Shown: positions 1 to 7,950 of the stretch, one piece after another
How positions within the stretch are numbered: position 1 is the first letter of the stretch
Layout of the letters: every line of letters starts with the position of its first letter
Assembly: GCA_002898375.1 (NCBI GenBank)
Contig: BEIN01000001.1
Location: 1-64,000 of the forward strand
Direction: 5' to 3'
Length of the DNA stretch: 64,000 bases
From: a bacterium HR37
GTDB lineage: Bacteria > Desulfobacterota_D > UBA1144 > Nemesobacterales > CSP1-2
The notes under the pieces: generated by a model
Databases searched by the model: none
Told to the model about the DNA's origin: nothing
What the model saw: the letters and a program-made list of their open reading frames with translations, nothing else
Translations under genes and position numbers: made by a program

Positions 1-1341
1 TGGTTGTGAAGCATCTACTGCCTCCTGAATTGTAGTGTAGTCACAACCAGATGCACAAACCGTCTTTATAACCTCACCCACACATACTATGGGAGCATCA
101 GATACTCCTGAATCAGGCTCGGAAAAAGATGGATCCGGGGTTGGGGTTGGGGTTGGAGTTGGAGTTGGCTCTGGAGCTGGAGTAGGTGTGGGAGTAGGCG
201 TAGGTGTAGGTGTAGGTGTTGGTTCCGGAGTTGGTGTAGGTGTTGGAGTAGGGGTAGGGCTTGTCTCCGTTTGTGATATAACCTCTATAACCACTGAATC
301 CAGAGCTTCTTTGCCAGCATTGTCTACAACCACAACTGTAGCCTGATAGGTTCCCGGTTCTGTATAGGTATAGGAGACCGGGTTTGAGTATGTTATCTCA
401 TCAATAATCCCATCACCGTTAAAATCCCACCTGTATTCTGTGATCTCACCATCAGGGTCGTAGGCGTTTGATTCAAATGTAACCGTAAGGGGAGAACTTC
501 CGCTTGAGGGTGTTGCCTGAAGTGCAAGTGATGGGGGTTGGTTTTGAGAGACAGTGTTTGGCAAAGTGTATTCAATGTAGAGAAGGGGTTTATTTGAAGA
601 GCTTTCCCTACTGTTAAAGTAGAGCTCTCCTCCTCCCTCTGACTTAACCGTAACCCCAAAGTTCTCTACTGCTCCATCAATCCAGTTCTGAACAAGGTTT
701 GTTACATCCCACTCAAAGTACTTATCGGTTGCTGTTACCGATATACTGTCCTCATAGAGGGAAGCTATGTTGGGTTTTGTGTTCCATACGGTTTTTTCAT
801 CCCAGGGATTCAGGTTTGCATAGACCCTTGTAGCACTATCAACCCTGAATTTGCGGTCGTATCTGCTGTAGAGCATTAGATAGGCTCTATTAATCTCGGC
901 ACCACCTGGAATCTGGGAAAGGTCAAACAGAAGAAGAACCTCTCTTCCCTTAGAGGTAGATTTAAAACGGGAGCCTCTGCGCAGGGAAAATCCAGAATCC
1001 CTTGAAGATCCTCCTCTTCCCCACTGTGAGGGTCTTTTTCCCCACCGTGTCTCTCTTGATTGCCTTCCAAAGGAATCTACACCTGCATAACCTGCCCCGG
1101 TGGTTGAGGTGGTGGTTGAGTCTGCATCTGGGTCGTATACTGCACTCAGCTTTGAGCTGCTTCCGTATGATCTTGTAGGTTTAGCCTTATCTACGTATGT
1201 ATCCATAACCGGTGTAAGGGTTATGCTCTCGGCCAGTGATGAGGCCGGATAGAGAATAAAGATTAAAATTAAAAGACATCTTGTAACTCCAGCATTGGTA
1301 TCTGAGAGTTTCCATCCCGTGGATGTGCAGTAGGTAAACAT
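1..1341 (-). CDS. Secreted surface protein (partial; C-terminus beyond window edge): signal peptide, DNRLRE domain, PKD domain, Pro-Thr linker, start of a probable beta-helix domain
   Basis: Manual minus-strand translation from ATG at 1341 after [56 protein letters not shown]...; '[42 protein letters not shown]' is PKD-like; then (PT)n; then '[17 protein letters not shown]', typical of right-handed beta-helix proteins. Frame open to base 1. Confidence 0.85.
137..260. repeat. Degenerate GGTGTT/GGAGTA-type tandem repeat encoding a (Pro-Thr)n linker on the minus strand
   Basis: Visible low-complexity repeat ggttggggttggagttgg...; minus-strand reading is [13 protein letters not shown]. Confidence 0.9.
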
Positions 1342-1417: not shown

Positions 1418-1536
1418 CTTGAAATCCTACTTCGGCAGCCCAGCCACCATGGGTTGCTCCTACAACCTTTAGGTCTGTGGCTTTGCGTCCCACCCTTTCA
1501 GATGGTTTGCCCTTGTCGGTTAGGATTTCAAAAGCC
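1418..1536 (-). promoter_or_regulatory. Cyclic di-GMP-I (GEMM-I) riboswitch aptamer
   Basis: Minus strand: GGCTTTTGAAATCCTAACCGACAAGGGCAAACCATCTGAAAGGGTGGGACGCAAAGCCACAGACCTAAAGGTTGTAGGAGCAACCCATGGTGGCTGGGCTGCCGAAGTAGGATTTCAAG. Has the GEMM-I features: GGGCAAACC, GAAA tetraloop stem, GGGACGCAAAGCCAC, CCTAA receptor side, GGCTGGGCTGCCG, closed by an 11-bp P1. Confidence 0.93.
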
Positions 1537-1826: not shown

Positions 1827-2069
1827 ATGCAGGAGAAAGGGACTGTAGATACGGTAAATAGTGCACGGAGACGGCTATTACAAATTGGGGTGTATTCTAT
1901 ACCTGCAGTTCTTCTTATAGGTACCGCCTCTCAAGCAAGAACAAGTAGAAGGTTTGGAAGAAGGAAAAGAAGGTCTTTTACCCCGGGAGGTAGACCAACA
2001 GGTGGAGGCTCAGGTTTAAGAAGTGGAAGGGGTTCAAGCTTTTTTAACAGGTTTAGAAGAGGACGCTAG
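1827..2069 (+). CDS. Small Arg/Gly/Ser-rich protein with twin-Arg-like hydrophobic leader; possible modified-peptide precursor
   Basis: ORF preceded by a purine-rich GGGGG region; MQEKGTVDTVNSARRRLLQIGVYSIPAVLLIGTASQA then a 43-aa tail with 14 Arg and 10 Gly; co-directional with HprK/PqqD/NTase genes. Confidence 0.7.
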   Translation: MQEKGTVDTVNSARRRLLQIGVYSIPAVLLIGTASQARTSRRFGRRKRRSFTPGGRPTGGGSGLRSGRGSSFFNRFRRGR

Positions 2070-2118
2070 GAGAGTACCACATTTCCTGCCTTTCCCCGGG
2101 TAAAAGAAGAGAGTTTTT

Positions 2119-2988
2119 ATGTTTAAGGTAAAATCTTCTAATTACAGATACTCTTGTTTTCTTAAAGCAATTTCATTCTGTGCTAGGGTCTATACAAACT
2201 CAAGGCTTTTTTTTAATGAGCTCTTTACAATTACACCCTTTTTCCAATTCCCTGGTGAGAATGGTAAGAAGGTAAGTGTTGAGTACGTGGCTCTAAAGAG
2301 AAAGGGAGGTTATATACTCCTTAGAGATGGAAGGCCTATATACGAGACACCTTACCACAGTGAGCTTTTACTTTTTCTCCTTGATTGTTTCCTGGATGAT
2401 TTCATTAAGTCAATAGATGGTTATCTTCTTATTCATGCAGCCGTTCTTGTAAAGAACGGAAGAGCTATAGTTTTACCTGCAAAATCAAGAAGCGGAAAAA
2501 GCACCCTTAGCATAGCCCTTATAAAAAGTGGTTTTAGGTATCTATCGGATGAGGTAGCGGCTATAAACCTTAAAACCCTCAAGGTAAGGGGCTTTCCAAG
2601 GTCAATAGCGATAAGAAAGAAGACCCTTTCGCTTTTTCCCTCCCTGGAGCCGGAAATAAATTACAGGTTCTTTAGCTTCCCCGGTGCAAAAGGAACGGTT
2701 GAGCTTCACTTTGGTATCCCCTCAAGAAGGAAAACCGCCTCCATTACAAAATCCTTTCCCGTATCCTCCATTATCTTTCCTGTCTATACCCCAAACGGTA
2801 CTACCTCTATTGATGGGCTTGGTAAGGCTCAGGCAGTTTTTAATGTGATGCGCTGCTCTTTTAACCAGCGTAAGCTAAAGGATAAGGTGTTTAAAACAGC
2901 CGTTAACCTTGTAAGACAGACTGACTGCTATATACTTCGGACAAAAGAGCTTAGTAAGGCATGTGAGATAATAAGCAATCTTATTTAA
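2119..2988 (+). CDS. HprK-related (HPr kinase/phosphorylase-like) kinase
   Basis: 'LLIHAAVLVKNGRAIVLPAKSRSGKSTLSIALIKSGFRYLSDEVAAI': P-loop and SDE motif as in HprK-related kinases. Confidence 0.85.
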   Translation: MFKVKSSNYRYSCFLKAISFCARVYTNSRLFFNELFTITPFFQFPGENGKKVSVEYVALKRKGGYILLRDGRPIYETPYHSELLLFLLDCFLDDFIKSIDGYLLIHAAVLVKNGRAIVLPAKSRSGKSTLSIALIKSGFRYLSDEVAAINLKTLKVRGFPRSIAIRKKTLSLFPSLEPEINYRFFSFPGAKGTVELHFGIPSRRKTASITKSFPVSSIIFPVYTPNGTTSIDGLGKAQAVFNVMRCSFNQRKLKDKVFKTAVNLVRQTDCYILRTKELSKACEIISNLI

Positions 2989-3001
2989 CGGGTAGTGTGT
3001 T

Positions 3002-3295
3002 ATGTCAAGTGAGAAAAAAGAGATTTACAGGGACAGAAAGTTTAGAAGAAGGGAAGGGGTGTTTAGTGAGGAGCTTGAAGGAGAGATCATACTCTTTGAC
3101 TCAAGAACCAAAAACACCTATGTCCTTAATCAGATTGCAGGTGTTATATGGGATCTATGTGATGGAGAGAATACCCCTGCTCAGATATCACTTGAGATCT
3201 CAAGTGCTTTGAAAGTAGATTCTGAGGTTGTCCTAAACGATGTCTTAAACACAATAGAGTATATGCTTGAGAAGGGGCTTGTTGAGGTTGAATAG
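3002..3295 (+). CDS. PqqD family (RRE-type) peptide-binding protein
   Basis: 'ILFDSRTKNTYVLNQIAGVIWDLCDGENTPAQISLEISSALKVDSEVVLNDVLNTIEYMLEKGLVEVE' matches PqqD architecture. Confidence 0.85.
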   Translation: MSSEKKEIYRDRKFRRREGVFSEELEGEIILFDSRTKNTYVLNQIAGVIWDLCDGENTPAQISLEISSALKVDSEVVLNDVLNTIEYMLEKGLVEVE

Positions 3296-4505
3296 AAACG
3301 GATCCATAAGCCCAGAAAAAGAGGAAAGACTTCTTCTCCTTCTCTCAAGAACGACTCTAACCCCGAAGCAAAAAGAAGAGTCGCTTGACATTATAAGGGA
3401 TGGGATTTTGTGGGAGCGTTTCTTATCAAAGGTATCTGAATTAGAGGTTTCTCCCCTTGTTTACAACACACTTTCTTCTTTGATAGGGGAATACAAATAC
3501 ATAGAAGACCTTATCCCGAGGGTTTATGTAGATGGGCTTAAAAGAAGCTACTACCTAAATGCCTCAAAAAACATGGTTCTTTTCAGGGAGGTTGGCAGGA
3601 TACTTTCCTCTCTAAACAGGCTTGGCATTCCCTTTATAGTCTTAAAGGGTGCTTACTTTGCTGAGCTTGTTTACCCAAACAGGGCTCTAAGAACAATGAC
3701 CGATGTGGATATTCTGGTTAGAAAGGAGGATATAAAAACCTGTGAGGCCCTTTTAAGGAAATCCGGTTACAACCCTTGTAGGGATTCTGCACCCAGTGAT
3801 TACTACGCTGACCTACACCATATCGTCCCATACGATTCCGGTGATGGGCTTATTCGTATAGAGGTGCATACCCATATCGTTAAGCCGACCTTTCCCGTTG
3901 TGCTTGATATAGAGGGGCTCTGGAGGAGGGCAAAAAGGGTAGAGATAGCCGGAAACGATACCCTTGTCCTCTCACCTGAAGATACGGTTTTACACCTTTG
4001 CCTCCACTTCTGTGTTCACCTTGTAAACGGCCGATCTTATGCCGGAAGGTTTAGGGGTATGTGCGATATATGCGAGTTTCTTGAGAAGTTTAAAACGGAG
4101 ATAAACTGGGATTTTATTTTAAAAGAGTCAAAGGAACACAGAATGGCACCCTGCATATACTATCCACTCTGGTTTGCAAAGGAGTTTTTGGGTGCCGACA
4201 TTCCGGAGGATGTTTTGGTTAGGTTAAAGGGAGCTATCCCCTTTGGTTCGCTGGAGGATAGGGTTTTAAAGGCCCTAATAAAGAGGTTTGTTTTTTTATC
4301 ATCGGATACTGAAGGGGGTTTTATCCCGGAGGGCTTTATCTACTCTTTCTCAAAGAGGGTGCTTACTGGCTGTGGGGAGAAAATGGGTTTTACCGGGGTA
4401 TTTTTTGGAGCTGTTTTGGAGGTGATCTGGGCTTACTTAAGGGCTTATTTTGTGTTTGCTTCAAGAGGCATAAGGCGTCTTTCATTTAGGGAAGCTGGGA
4501 ATTAG
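3267..4505 (+). CDS. Nucleotidyltransferase family protein (NTP_transf_5-like)
   Basis: 'GIPFIVLKGAYFAELVYPNRALRTMTDVDILVRKEDIKTCEALLRKSGY', with 'LHLCLHFCVHLVNG'; overlaps the end of the PqqD gene; TTG start uncertain. Confidence 0.8.
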   Translation: MRRGLLRLNRNGSISPEKEERLLLLLSRTTLTPKQKEESLDIIRDGILWERFLSKVSELEVSPLVYNTLSSLIGEYKYIEDLIPRVYVDGLKRSYYLNASKNMVLFREVGRILSSLNRLGIPFIVLKGAYFAELVYPNRALRTMTDVDILVRKEDIKTCEALLRKSGYNPCRDSAPSDYYADLHHIVPYDSGDGLIRIEVHTHIVKPTFPVVLDIEGLWRRAKRVEIAGNDTLVLSPEDTVLHLCLHFCVHLVNGRSYAGRFRGMCDICEFLEKFKTEINWDFILKESKEHRMAPCIYYPLWFAKEFLGADIPEDVLVRLKGAIPFGSLEDRVLKALIKRFVFLSSDTEGGFIPEGFIYSFSKRVLTGCGEKMGFTGVFFGAVLEVIWAYLRAYFVFASRGIRRLSFREAGN

Positions 4506-4644: not shown

Positions 4645-5634
4645 ATGTTTTTAAGAAGTTCTTTCTTATTGGCTTTATTTGCAACAATAGCTCTTGCTGG
4701 TTGTGGTGGGGGGAAATCCCCGGAATCAATGATTCCAAGCAAATTTAAGACATCGGGTAACGATGAGGTTAAAAAGCTTAACACAAGGATTATAACAAGG
4801 TCTTCTACCGATTTTTCGGTAAGTGATTACAGGATAGGGCCAGGTGATCTGATAGAGGTTAAGGTGTATGAAGCCCAGGACCTAAGTACCGTTGCAAGGG
4901 TTAACTCAAGGGGAACCGTTACGTACCCCCTTCTTGGCGAGGTTGAGCTCGGCTCACTTACGGTTCAGGAAGCGGAGCAGAAGCTAAGGGATCTACTTGC
5001 GGCAAAGTACGTAAAGGACCCGCATGTAAGTGTGTTTATAAGGGAGTATAGAAGCAAAAACGTTGCTGTTGTTGGAGCTGTAAACAAGCCAGGAAACTAT
5101 GAGCTCTTAAACCAGGGACGTCTTCTCGATGCCCTTGCCCTGGCCGGAGGGCTTACTGAAAATGCAGGTAAGGTGGTTTACGTAACAAAGTACGGCACGG
5201 GTGAGCAGGTGGCAATTGACCTTGATGAGCTTCTTATGGATGGTAATACCGGTTTAAACATACCCGTTAGCATGGGGGATACGGTTTTTGTTCCCGAGGC
5301 GGGGGTCTTTTACGTAAACGGTGCTGTAAAGCGACCGGGAGAGTACAGAATAAGGGATCAGGTAACGGTTAGCAAAGCCATAGGAATGGCAGGTGGGTTG
5401 GTAACGGGAGCAAAATCCTCAGAGGTAAAGTTGATAAGGTTTGGCAAAAACGGGGAAAGGGAGATGGTTTCTGTTGACCTTAAGGCTATCGAGAGAGGGG
5501 AGCAGGAAGATATTGCCCTTCAGGACCAGGATGTGGTGTTTGTTGACCAGAATGCGATTATAGCCTTTTTCCAGACGCTAAGGCTTGGGTTTTTCTTCCC
5601 GCCCTTTAGTTTAAGTGGCTCTGCTCCACAGTAA
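4645..5634 (+). CDS. Polysaccharide export lipoprotein (Wza-like, SLBB domains)
   Basis: Lipobox 'LAGCGGG'; 'DYRIGPGDLIEVKVYEAQDLSTVARVNSRGTVTYPLLGEV'; SLBB repeats. Confidence 0.92.
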   Translation: MFLRSSFLLALFATIALAGCGGGKSPESMIPSKFKTSGNDEVKKLNTRIITRSSTDFSVSDYRIGPGDLIEVKVYEAQDLSTVARVNSRGTVTYPLLGEVELGSLTVQEAEQKLRDLLAAKYVKDPHVSVFIREYRSKNVAVVGAVNKPGNYELLNQGRLLDALALAGGLTENAGKVVYVTKYGTGEQVAIDLDELLMDGNTGLNIPVSMGDTVFVPEAGVFYVNGAVKRPGEYRIRDQVTVSKAIGMAGGLVTGAKSSEVKLIRFGKNGEREMVSVDLKAIERGEQEDIALQDQDVVFVDQNAIIAFFQTLRLGFFFPPFSLSGSAPQ

Positions 5635-5655
5635 ATTTAAGGAGAGTTGGTAAAG

Positions 5656-7950
5656 ATGAGAGACGAGGAAAAAAACGGAGAAAAAGGGCTTGTTCCTGCC
5701 AGGGTTAAGAGAAGGGTTATAAAGGATTACGTTGATGTTCCCAGAACCTCAGGCCCCAGAGAGGAGGAGATAGACCCTTATACCTATCTACAGGTAATAT
5801 GGAAGCACAGAAAGATAGGTTTCCTTTTCTTTTCCGTTGTTTTGATTACGGCAATTGTTGTCTCTTTTATCACAAAACCGATGTACTATGCTCAGTCAAC
5901 GGTTGAGATTGCCCTTGAGAGACCAAAGGTGGTTGCTTTTGAGGAGGTTGTTGAGGTAAACACCCAGGACCCTGAGTTCTTTAACACCCAAAGAGACCTT
6001 ATTAAAAGCCGTTCAATGGCAGAAGCAGTGCTTTCTAAGTTTAATCTGTGGGAGCATCCAGAGTTCTATACCTTTCAGCCAAATCTAAACCCCATATCTA
6101 TTGCGTTTTCCTACGCGATGCGCTTTGCCAGGGCTGTGGTAAATCCTATAAAACTTGCTCTTACCAGCTCAGAGACCGGTGTTGCAGGGGGAAGTGGGGT
6201 TGATGAGATAGACTGGGAGAGAAAGAGAAAGGATGGGATAATAGATGTTTTTCTCTCAAGGGTTCGGGTGGTTCCATCCCAGGACTCACGTATAATCTAT
6301 ATTGGCTTTGAGGCTTACAGCCCCTCTTTTGCTGCAAAGATGGCAAATGCCATAGCAGATACCTTTGTTGAGTGGAGCCTTGATAGGAGACTTGAGGCTA
6401 CACGTAATGCAAGGGAGTTTTTAGAGAGGCAGATTGAGGAGGTAAAGGCTGATTTGGAGAGATCAGAGCAGGCTCTTCACAGGTTTGAGGTGGAAAACAA
6501 CATAGTTTCCCTGGACAGAAACATGAACCTTGTATACCGTCAGCTTGAAGAGCTAAACTCCTCCCTTGCAAGAACCACCGCTGAGAGAACTGCAAAGGAG
6601 TCCCTTTATAAGTCAATTGAGTCGGGAGACCCATCTACCCTTATAGAGGTTATAGAGGACCCTTTAATCAGGGAGCTTAAAAGTGAGTACAACAGGCTTC
6701 TTGTTGAGTACAGCAATTTAAGTGCCGTGTTTAAACCCGAGTACCCACCTCTTAAGCAGCTTCAGGCCAAGATAAGCGGGATCAGAAACCGTATAAACGA
6801 GGAGACAAAGAAGAAGATACTTGCACTTCGTTCCGACTACCAGCAGACCATTTTAAAGGAAGAGGGGCTTAAGAAGCGGCTTGAGGAACAGGAAAAGCTT
6901 GCTATGGCACTAAATGAGAAATCAATCCAGTACAGGATTCTTGAAAGGGAGGTGGAAAGTAATAAATCCGTCTATGAGTCATTGCTTCAGCGCTTAAAGG
7001 AAACTGACGTTACAGGAGGGATAAAGTCCAATCCGATTCAGGTTCTTGACCATGCTGCTGTTCCACTTACTCCTTTTAAACCCAACATTCCCAGAAACGT
7101 TTTACTTGCCTTTCTGGTTGGGCTTATAGGGGCTGTGGGAATAGCCTTTGTAAGGGAGTTCTTTGATAGGTCCATTAAGACACCTGAGGAGATAACCGAA
7201 AAGATGAACCTTCCTGTTCTTGGTGCGATAGTTAAGTTATCGGGTAGCTCTAAAAAGAGGGTTGGGAGTTCCGCAAGGTTATACGTTGCTGAACCCGGCT
7301 CTCCTTTCTCAGAGGCCATACGTACGATTCGCACCTCCATTGTAATGTCATCTGAAAGTGGAGACTCGCTGTGTTCGGTGCTTGTTACAAGCTGCTGGCC
7401 AACTGAGGGTAAGTCTACCCTTGCCTCAAACCTTGCTCTCTCCCTTGCCTTTGGCCCAAATCGCGTGCTTCTTCTGGAGGCTGATCTCCGTCACCCATCC
7501 CTGGGAAGGGCATTTGGCATTGATAGAAACGAACCTGGACTGAGTAACTTCCTTCTGGCCGATGCTGAAATAGAGGATATAATTCATTTTACGGATACAC
7601 CCCAGCTGTTTTTCATCCCCGCTGGCTCTATTATCTCCTCAAGCCCATCTGAGCTCCTTCAGGCTGAGAAGATGAAGCGGCTTCTTGATTCACTAAAGGA
7701 GGATTTTGACTATGTGATTGTTGATAGCCCTCCAACAATAGGGCTTTCAGATTCACTTGTGCTTTCCAAACTTACGGATGCTACAGTGCTTGTTGTAAGC
7801 TCTGGGATAACCATGCAGCGTGATATAGTTCATGCTGTAAAGCAGCTTTCAAATGTTGGTGCCAGGCTTCTCGGCGTCGTTGTAAACCGCCTGGATTCAA
7901 AACACGAAAACTACTACTACCGCTACAACTACTACAGAAACAGCGCCTAG
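5656..7950 (+). CDS. Polysaccharide chain-length determinant / BY-type tyrosine kinase (Wzc-like)
   Basis: Wzz domain plus 'VTSCWPTEGKSTLASNLALSLA', 'VLLLEADLRHPSLG', 'DYVIVDSPPTIGLSDSL'; C-terminal Tyr cluster ENYYYRYNYYRNSA; start moved to ATG 5656. Confidence 0.93.
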   Translation: MRDEEKNGEKGLVPARVKRRVIKDYVDVPRTSGPREEEIDPYTYLQVIWKHRKIGFLFFSVVLITAIVVSFITKPMYYAQSTVEIALERPKVVAFEEVVEVNTQDPEFFNTQRDLIKSRSMAEAVLSKFNLWEHPEFYTFQPNLNPISIAFSYAMRFARAVVNPIKLALTSSETGVAGGSGVDEIDWERKRKDGIIDVFLSRVRVVPSQDSRIIYIGFEAYSPSFAAKMANAIADTFVEWSLDRRLEATRNAREFLERQIEEVKADLERSEQALHRFEVENNIVSLDRNMNLVYRQLEELNSSLARTTAERTAKESLYKSIESGDPSTLIEVIEDPLIRELKSEYNRLLVEYSNLSAVFKPEYPPLKQLQAKISGIRNRINEETKKKILALRSDYQQTILKEEGLKKRLEEQEKLAMALNEKSIQYRILEREVESNKSVYESLLQRLKETDVTGGIKSNPIQVLDHAAVPLTPFKPNIPRNVLLAFLVGLIGAVGIAFVREFFDRSIKTPEEITEKMNLPVLGAIVKLSGSSKKRVGSSARLYVAEPGSPFSEAIRTIRTSIVMSSESGDSLCSVLVTSCWPTEGKSTLASNLALSLAFGPNRVLLLEADLRHPSLGRAFGIDRNEPGLSNFLLADAEIEDIIHFTDTPQLFFIPAGSIISSSPSELLQAEKMKRLLDSLKEDFDYVIVDSPPTIGLSDSLVLSKLTDATVLVVSSGITMQRDIVHAVKQLSNVGARLLGVVVNRLDSKHENYYYRYNYYRNSA

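What the first reader, a model, noticed from the sequence alone, without database searches (positions are those of the whole stretch)
1827..4505. Possible RiPP-like module: Arg/Gly/Ser-rich peptide + HprK-like kinase + PqqD (RRE) + NTP_transf_5 nucleotidyltransferase
Seen: four consecutive + strand genes. The 80-aa product has a hydrophobic twin-Arg-like leader (ARRRLLQIGVYSIPAVLLIGTASQA) and a 43-aa tail with 14 Arg and 10 Gly plus several Ser (RTSRRFGRRKRRSFTPGGRPTGGGSGLRSGRGSSFFNRFRRGR). Established: PqqD-like proteins are RiPP recognition elements. HprK-like kinases and nucleotidyltransferases occur as tailoring enzymes in some lasso-peptide clusters. Similar HprK/PqqD/NTase trios are also seen near exopolysaccharide genes. 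Inference: the peptide could be a precursor whose Ser residues are phosphorylated or nucleotidylated, possibly linked to the wza/wzc export genes that follow.
Basis: partly seen in the sequence, partly recalled or inferred. Interest (0 to 1): 0.7.

Follow-up and report, generated by a model that had tools for sequence, protein, structure and literature searches.

The report
Tat-type leader peptide with RRE-kinase module
A tiny bacterial gene beside a peptide-binding protein, a kinase and a nucleotidyltransferase looks like the raw material of a modified, exported peptide: its export-signal-like start also carries the docking motif for the modification machinery, and the same pairing recurs in several bacterial phyla, which points to an undescribed variant of known peptide-modification systems.

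Summary
The four genes are real and in the stated order: an 80-aa peptide (1827-2069), an HprK-like kinase, a PqqD-like RRE and an NTP_transf_5 nucleotidyltransferase, followed by wza/wzc. The small ORF is not chance. Its leader is conserved in five more peptides from its own genome and two relatives. In one of these (G004) it again sits directly before kinase and RRE. The tails differ completely. Inside the hydrophobic core of this twin-arginine-like leader lies YxxPxVxxxG (Y23-G32), the motif that lasso and LPP peptides use to bind PqqD-like RREs. Peptides with [KR]Rx[FL] plus [YF]xxPx[IV] and variable low-complexity tails sit beside HprK+PqqD in 20 of 40 loci fetched, across about six phylum-level groups, against 0 of 44 control windows. 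In loci fetched after the motif was stated it was 7 of 12. The predicted RRE structure best matches lasso RRE-leader complexes. Best explanation: a RiPP-like system related to the 2026 "linear polyphosphorylated peptides" of Bacillota, but with a Tat-type leader in place of the dedicated peptidase and transporter. Docking is well supported. Phosphorylation site, Tat export and the exopolysaccharide link are inferred. Verdict: new variant of a known kind.

The parts
1827..2069 (+). 80-aa precursor-type small protein: Tat-like leader (residues 1-37) plus Arg/Gly/Ser-rich tail
   Evidence: leader relatives; motif context
1866..1880 (+). R14-R-R-L-L18, twin-arginine-like motif of the leader
   Evidence: R14, R15, L17, L18 invariant in 6 peptides
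1893..1922 (+). Y23-S-I-P-A-V-L-L-I-G32 = YxxPxVxxxG, predicted RRE-binding motif
   Evidence: Y23, S24, P26, G32 invariant; motif definition in PMC13381572
1944..1946 (+). Ser40 codon, invariant Ser just after the A-x-A leader end; predicted phosphorylation site (inference)
   Evidence: S40 invariant in 6 peptides; LPP precedent
2119..2988 (+). HprK-like peptide kinase with H106, K127, D144-E145
3002..3295 (+). PqqD-like discrete RRE; N43, I45 and D80 match the leader-binding positions N33, V35 and D70 of LppB
3267..4505 (+). NTP_transf_5 nucleotidyltransferase with conserved K127-G128, R142 and D146xD148
4645..5634 (+). Wza-like polysaccharide export protein (Poly_export + SLBB); linked by context only
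5647..7950 (+). Wzc-like chain-length determinant/tyrosine autokinase; linked by context only
1431..1521 (-). c-di-GMP-I riboswitch upstream of the divergent surface-protein gene; context only
   Evidence: RF01051, 83.1 bits

Best explanation
This is a RiPP-like peptide-modification module. The PqqD-like protein (RRE) binds the YxxPxVxxxG motif in the leader of the 80-aa peptide and presents the tail to the HprK-like kinase. The kinase phosphorylates a Ser, most likely S40 just behind the A-x-A leader end, and the nucleotidyltransferase then modifies the phosphopeptide. The leader is also a Tat-type signal peptide, and the RRE motif lies in its hydrophobic core, so the RRE should shield the signal until modification is done, as the chaperones DmsD/TorD do. 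The peptide is then exported by Tat and cut by an ordinary signal peptidase, which would explain why no dedicated peptidase or ABC exporter is encoded. The product probably acts in the cell-surface/exopolysaccharide context of the neighbouring wza/wzc genes. Shown here: conservation, motif, association across phyla, RRE fold, intact catalytic residues, a tatC gene. Inferred: binding, site and chemistry, Tat export, exopolysaccharide link.
For: Leader conserved while the tail changes completely, in six peptides, with gene order peptide-HprK-PqqD kept in G004. The motif equals the [Y/W]xxPx[L/V/I..] motif recognised by discrete RREs. 33 small ORFs with Tat-like leader and YxxP in 510 kb near HprK hits, 0 in 433 kb of control DNA. 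By locus 20 of 40 against 0 of 44, Fisher p 1e-8; 7 of 12 in loci fetched after the motif was stated, p 3e-6. PqqD model pLDDT 93.3; best PDB fold matches are TbiB1 and TfuB1 bound to lasso leaders, TM 0.71-0.85; the profile finds LppB, E 3.5e-11. Kinase H-K-D kept; NTase has the nucleotidyltransferase fold (LnuA/ANT(2'')-like). LPP precedent: same enzyme trio, (poly)phosphorylation of core Ser3, capsular loci. TatC present. 22 of 30 peptides have a Ser around the predicted cut.
Against: No binding, mass-spectrometry or export data. Two own-genome paralogues and both G005 peptides are not next to the trio, and no HprK relative was found in G005, so the leader can exist without a local kinase. 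Half of the HprK+PqqD loci lack such a peptide. Some leaders have KR instead of RR, which Tat uses poorly; no signal-peptide predictor was available. The window RRE has Thr84 where LppB has the pocket Phe74. A Ser near the cut is missing in the G058, G105, G270 and G426 peptides.
Confidence: 0.68

Rival explanations
1. RiPP-like precursor modified by the trio, but the leader is not a Tat signal: the basic-hydrophobic stretch is only an extended RRE/kinase recognition sequence or a Sec/membrane anchor, and export (if any) is by another route.
For: Several leaders have KR rather than RR (L096, L027, L120). Related HprK+PqqD loci use soluble YxxP leaders without any Tat motif (L099, L111, L118).
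Against: [KR]Rx[FL][LI] followed by a hydrophobic core and A-x-A fits Tat signals in most of the 30 peptides; no dedicated peptidase or exporter is encoded; tatC is present.
Confidence: 0.17
2. The trio belongs to exopolysaccharide synthesis or to other substrates, and the 80-aa gene is an unrelated small exported protein that merely lies next to it.
For: wza/wzc follow directly. Peptides without a local kinase exist.
Against: The cross-phylum association and the shared RRE motif inside otherwise divergent leaders.
Confidence: 0.1
3. It is a true lasso-peptide or LPP cluster that has lost genes.
For: Same RRE, kinase and NTase types; YxxPxV motif; polysaccharide context.
Against: No cyclase, B2, SipW-like peptidase or transporter among the genes around it. 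Its RRE falls with other Tat-leader RREs, apart from lasso/LPP RREs (branch 96/87). No such gene was seen beside the module in the G004 relative either, though its contig is short.
Confidence: 0.05

Closest known systems
Linear polyphosphorylated peptides (LPPs), Popov et al. 2026, PMC13381572
   Same: Discrete RRE, HprK-like kinase and NTP transferase; linear precursor with conserved YxxPxV leader and highly variable C terminus; polysaccharide loci; phosphorylated Ser close behind the cleavage site (there shown, here predicted).
   Different: LPPs have a SipW-like peptidase and MsbA-like exporter, the longer motif YxxPxVLxHQxIxFETxxS, and are reported as restricted to Bacillota. Here the leader is Tat-like, neither gene is present, and the RRE lies outside the lasso/LPP group.
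Paeninodin/pseudomycoidin-type lasso peptides (kinase PadeK/PsmK, NTase PsmN), PMC9266682
   Same: RRE + HprK-like kinase + nucleotidyltransferase acting on a Ser of a precursor with [Y/W]xxPxL leader.
   Different: No macrolactam cyclase and no B2 protease here; the modified lasso Ser is C-terminal, whereas the conserved Ser here is next to the leader.
HPr-rel-A system of NCBIfam (TIGR04352 kinase, TIGR04353 PqqD_rel_X)
   Same: Same protein types and pairing.
   Different: Kinase 129.8 bits against cut-off 200; PqqD 14.8 against 35. No target peptide is named in the family titles shown and no paper was found.
Tat signal-peptide chaperones DmsD/TorD, PMC3316669
   Same: A chaperone binds the hydrophobic part of a twin-arginine leader and reduces membrane binding of the precursor.
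   Different: Different cargo (redox enzymes) and, from general knowledge, an unrelated fold; the analogy is functional and inferred.

Membership tests
LPP (linear polyphosphorylated peptide) system | Discrete RRE, HprK-like kinase and NTP transferase clustered with a precursor | tested here: met
LPP (linear polyphosphorylated peptide) system | SipW/SpI-like leader peptidase and MsbA-like transporter in the cluster | tested here: not met
   neither among the ORFs of 1-8 kb; elsewhere in the genome not searched
LPP (linear polyphosphorylated peptide) system | Leader motif YxxPxVLxHQxIxFETxxS | tested here: not met
   only the YxxPxV part is present
LPP (linear polyphosphorylated peptide) system | RRE in the LPP clade | tested here: not met
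   RRE tree, branch 96/87 separates it from LppB; only 90 columns, LppB on a long branch
LPP (linear polyphosphorylated peptide) system | (Poly)phosphorylated Ser near the leader | not testable with these tools
   candidate S40 conserved; needs mass spectrometry
Lasso peptide | Asn-synthetase-like cyclase and B2 protease | tested here: not met
   absent around the locus; a B2 was seen only in the separate C27 cluster
RiPP with RRE (general) | Conserved leader and variable core beside an RRE protein | tested here: met
RiPP with RRE (general) | Enzymatic modification of the core | not testable with these tools
   no expression data
Tat substrate | n-region with twin Arg, hydrophobic core, A-x-A | tested here: met
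   pattern scan only; no trained predictor available
Tat substrate | tatC-dependent export | not testable with these tools
   tatC is present
NCBIfam HPr-rel-A system | Scores over TIGR04352 and TIGR04353 cut-offs | tested here: not met
   129.8 vs 200 and 14.8 vs 35 bits

The most novel reading that the evidence does not exclude
A multi-phylum class of RiPPs whose leader is both the RRE ligand and a Tat signal, with the RRE acting as a proofreading chaperone that releases the peptide to the Tat translocase only after phosphorylation and nucleotidyl/glycosyl tailoring, so that low-complexity phosphopeptides are delivered to the cell-surface polysaccharide.
Probability: 0.3. Interest if true: 0.82.

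Novelty: new variant of a known kind. Interest (0 to 1): 0.62.

Why it matters
HprK-like kinase/PqqD/NTase modules recur in many bacteria, often near exopolysaccharide genes, and for most of them no substrate is known. The shared Tat-type leader with an embedded RRE motif names a substrate class for about half of the loci examined, gives a simple bench test (Y23A/P26A, S40A, tatC), and would extend phosphorylated linear RiPPs from Bacillota to other phyla, with general protein export in place of a dedicated peptidase and transporter.

Tried and rejected
Close-relative scan of the NTase in genome contigs found nothing, and one with the leader alignment found only the G005 contig. Phylum scans around G270, G105 and G058 held only 1-3 genomes. 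Considered and rejected: lasso cluster (no cyclase or B2 here), true LPP cluster (no peptidase or exporter, RRE outside the clade), random ORF (leader conserved). The idea that the Arg/Gly tail is methylated here, as suggested by PRMT-like genes beside other HprK/PqqD pairs, found no support in this genome (one query only, so weak). Promoter and terminator scans were at chance level. No paper found combines RRE and Tat leaders. The complex of RRE and leader could not be folded: only unchanged single proteins may be predicted.

Full report
Observation. All four genes are present at the stated coordinates. PqqD (PF05402) and NTP_transf_5 (PF14907) are over their Pfam cut-offs. The kinase is related to HprK_rel_A but below its curated cut-off, with His, P-loop Lys and Asp kept in an alignment of 15 relatives. 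Wza- and Wzc-like genes follow. The small ORF has no hit in Pfam or NCBIfam at E up to 1.

Is the small ORF real? A search of 61 genomes with the peptide found two more copies in the own genome (C6, C14), one in G004 and two in G005. Six peptides align with invariant R14, R15, L17, L18, G21, Y23, S24, P26, G32, A37 and S40. Behind this leader the tails are unrelated: Arg/Gly (window), Pro (G004), two-Cys (C6, G005), Lys-rich (C14). In G004 the order peptide-HprK-PqqD is the same. A conserved leader with a variable tail next to an RRE is the layout of RiPP precursors.

The motif. Y23-S-I-P26-A-V28-L-L-I-G32 fits [Y/W]xxPx[L/V/I/A/F/Y], which discrete lasso RREs bind (PMC13381572). It lies inside the hydrophobic core of a leader that begins with RRRLL and ends with A-x-A, that is, a Tat-type signal by pattern.

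Other phyla. Regions around TIGR04352 hits in 387 genomes, and later in the phyla of G194 and G201, were read for small ORFs. Peptides of the same make-up occur in family f3 of the same order, up to five per locus, many with tails of only a few residues. They also occur in G058, G105 (beside PqqD-HprK-NTase and next to wza/wzc-type genes, as in the window), G194 and five relatives, G201/G411/G426, and G270 (two peptides with Arg/Gly tails). Counts: 33 in 510 kb near HprK against 0 in 433 kb of random regions, taken mostly from the same genomes; 20 of 40 HprK+PqqD loci against 0 of 44 windows. The motif was stated in the notebook. Of the 12 HprK+PqqD loci fetched later, 7 have it. Loci of one phylum are related, so the p-values overstate independence. 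A common form outside the window's subfamily is [YF]xxPx[IV]x[ST][FLV].

RRE and enzymes. AlphaFold2 of the PqqD gave pLDDT 93.3. The nearest solved structures are TbiB1 and TfuB1 with bound lasso leaders, and a profile also finds LppB, PbaB1 and PqqD. Positions N43, I45 and D80 correspond to LppB N33, V35 and D70, which hold the Tyr and Pro of the motif (mapping by alignment), but the pocket Phe74 is Thr84 here. The NTase model (pLDDT 81.3) matches LnuA and ANT(2'')-Ia, so nucleotidyl transfer is plausible; PsmN of the pseudomycoidin cluster, however, leads to hexosylation of phospho-Ser (PMC9266682), and LppN showed no activity in its test.

Mechanism. By analogy with LppK (core Ser3 of AQSNWK, polyphosphorylated), the invariant S40 just behind the leader is the best candidate site. 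22 of 30 peptides have Ser around the predicted cut, and several f3 peptides even read A-Q-S-N there. Because binding site and export signal coincide, the RRE should delay export until modification is complete, as DmsD does for its Tat substrate (PMC3316669). This is inference.

Membership. The system is not a lasso cluster and not an LPP in the published sense: peptidase, exporter, full leader motif and RRE clade are not met. It works like an LPP with respect to RRE, kinase and NTase. The tree rests on 90 columns and has long branches; it places the window RRE with G004 (100/96) and, on a 96/87 branch, on the side away from lasso/LPP RREs.

Limits. No experiment; Tat assignment by pattern only; most loci are from fragmentary genomes; peptides without a nearby kinase exist (G005, C6, C14), so action in trans or another role remains possible. 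Organism: the G005 contig carries the same peptide and length as JACPIY010000019.1, labelled Deltaproteobacteria; a Dadabacteria-like identity of the phylum is a guess from genome sizes in its class.

Noticed in passing
L019 (G000 contig C27) 184-9400: Second RiPP-like cluster in the same genome: PqqD fused to an MslH-like (lasso Trp epimerase) domain, a GMC oxidoreductase-type pair (by eye), PqqD, HprK-like kinase, lasso B2 protease, NTP_transf_5 and an ABC transporter; no cyclase seen.
   Followed up: partly
window 1431-1521 (-) and 1-1341 (-): c-di-GMP-I riboswitch (83.1 bits) ahead of a divergent CBM96 + PKD surface protein, next to the peptide module.
   Followed up: partly
L027, L105, L114, L133, L096 next to HprK: PRMT-like arginine methyltransferases (PF22528; in L096 a contig-edge fragment with weak PF05185) recur beside HprK+PqqD; in L096 the precursor tails are Arg/Gly-rich, a typical substrate of such enzymes.
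   Followed up: partly
L026:5728-6345, L022:8320-8943, L024:2007-2624: The same leader is fused to a Hint/intein-like domain in the gene next to HprK (PF13403 24.2 bits, TIGR01445 23.5 bits for L026, both just below cut-off); the other two by sequence similarity.
   Followed up: no
L172:721-1278, L175:2163-2597: PqqD proteins with a Tat-like leader fused to their own N terminus, beside HprK.
   Followed up: no
L052:689-1478 (G000 contig C14): Repeats translating as FQFPTGIRGIST with unique spacers, probably a CRISPR array, close to an orphan leader peptide.
   Followed up: no
L097 (G105 contig C12) 7246-9207: Two HprK-like genes, each next to its own small Tat-like peptide with YHxPSI motif and Met/Gly/His tails.
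   Followed up: no
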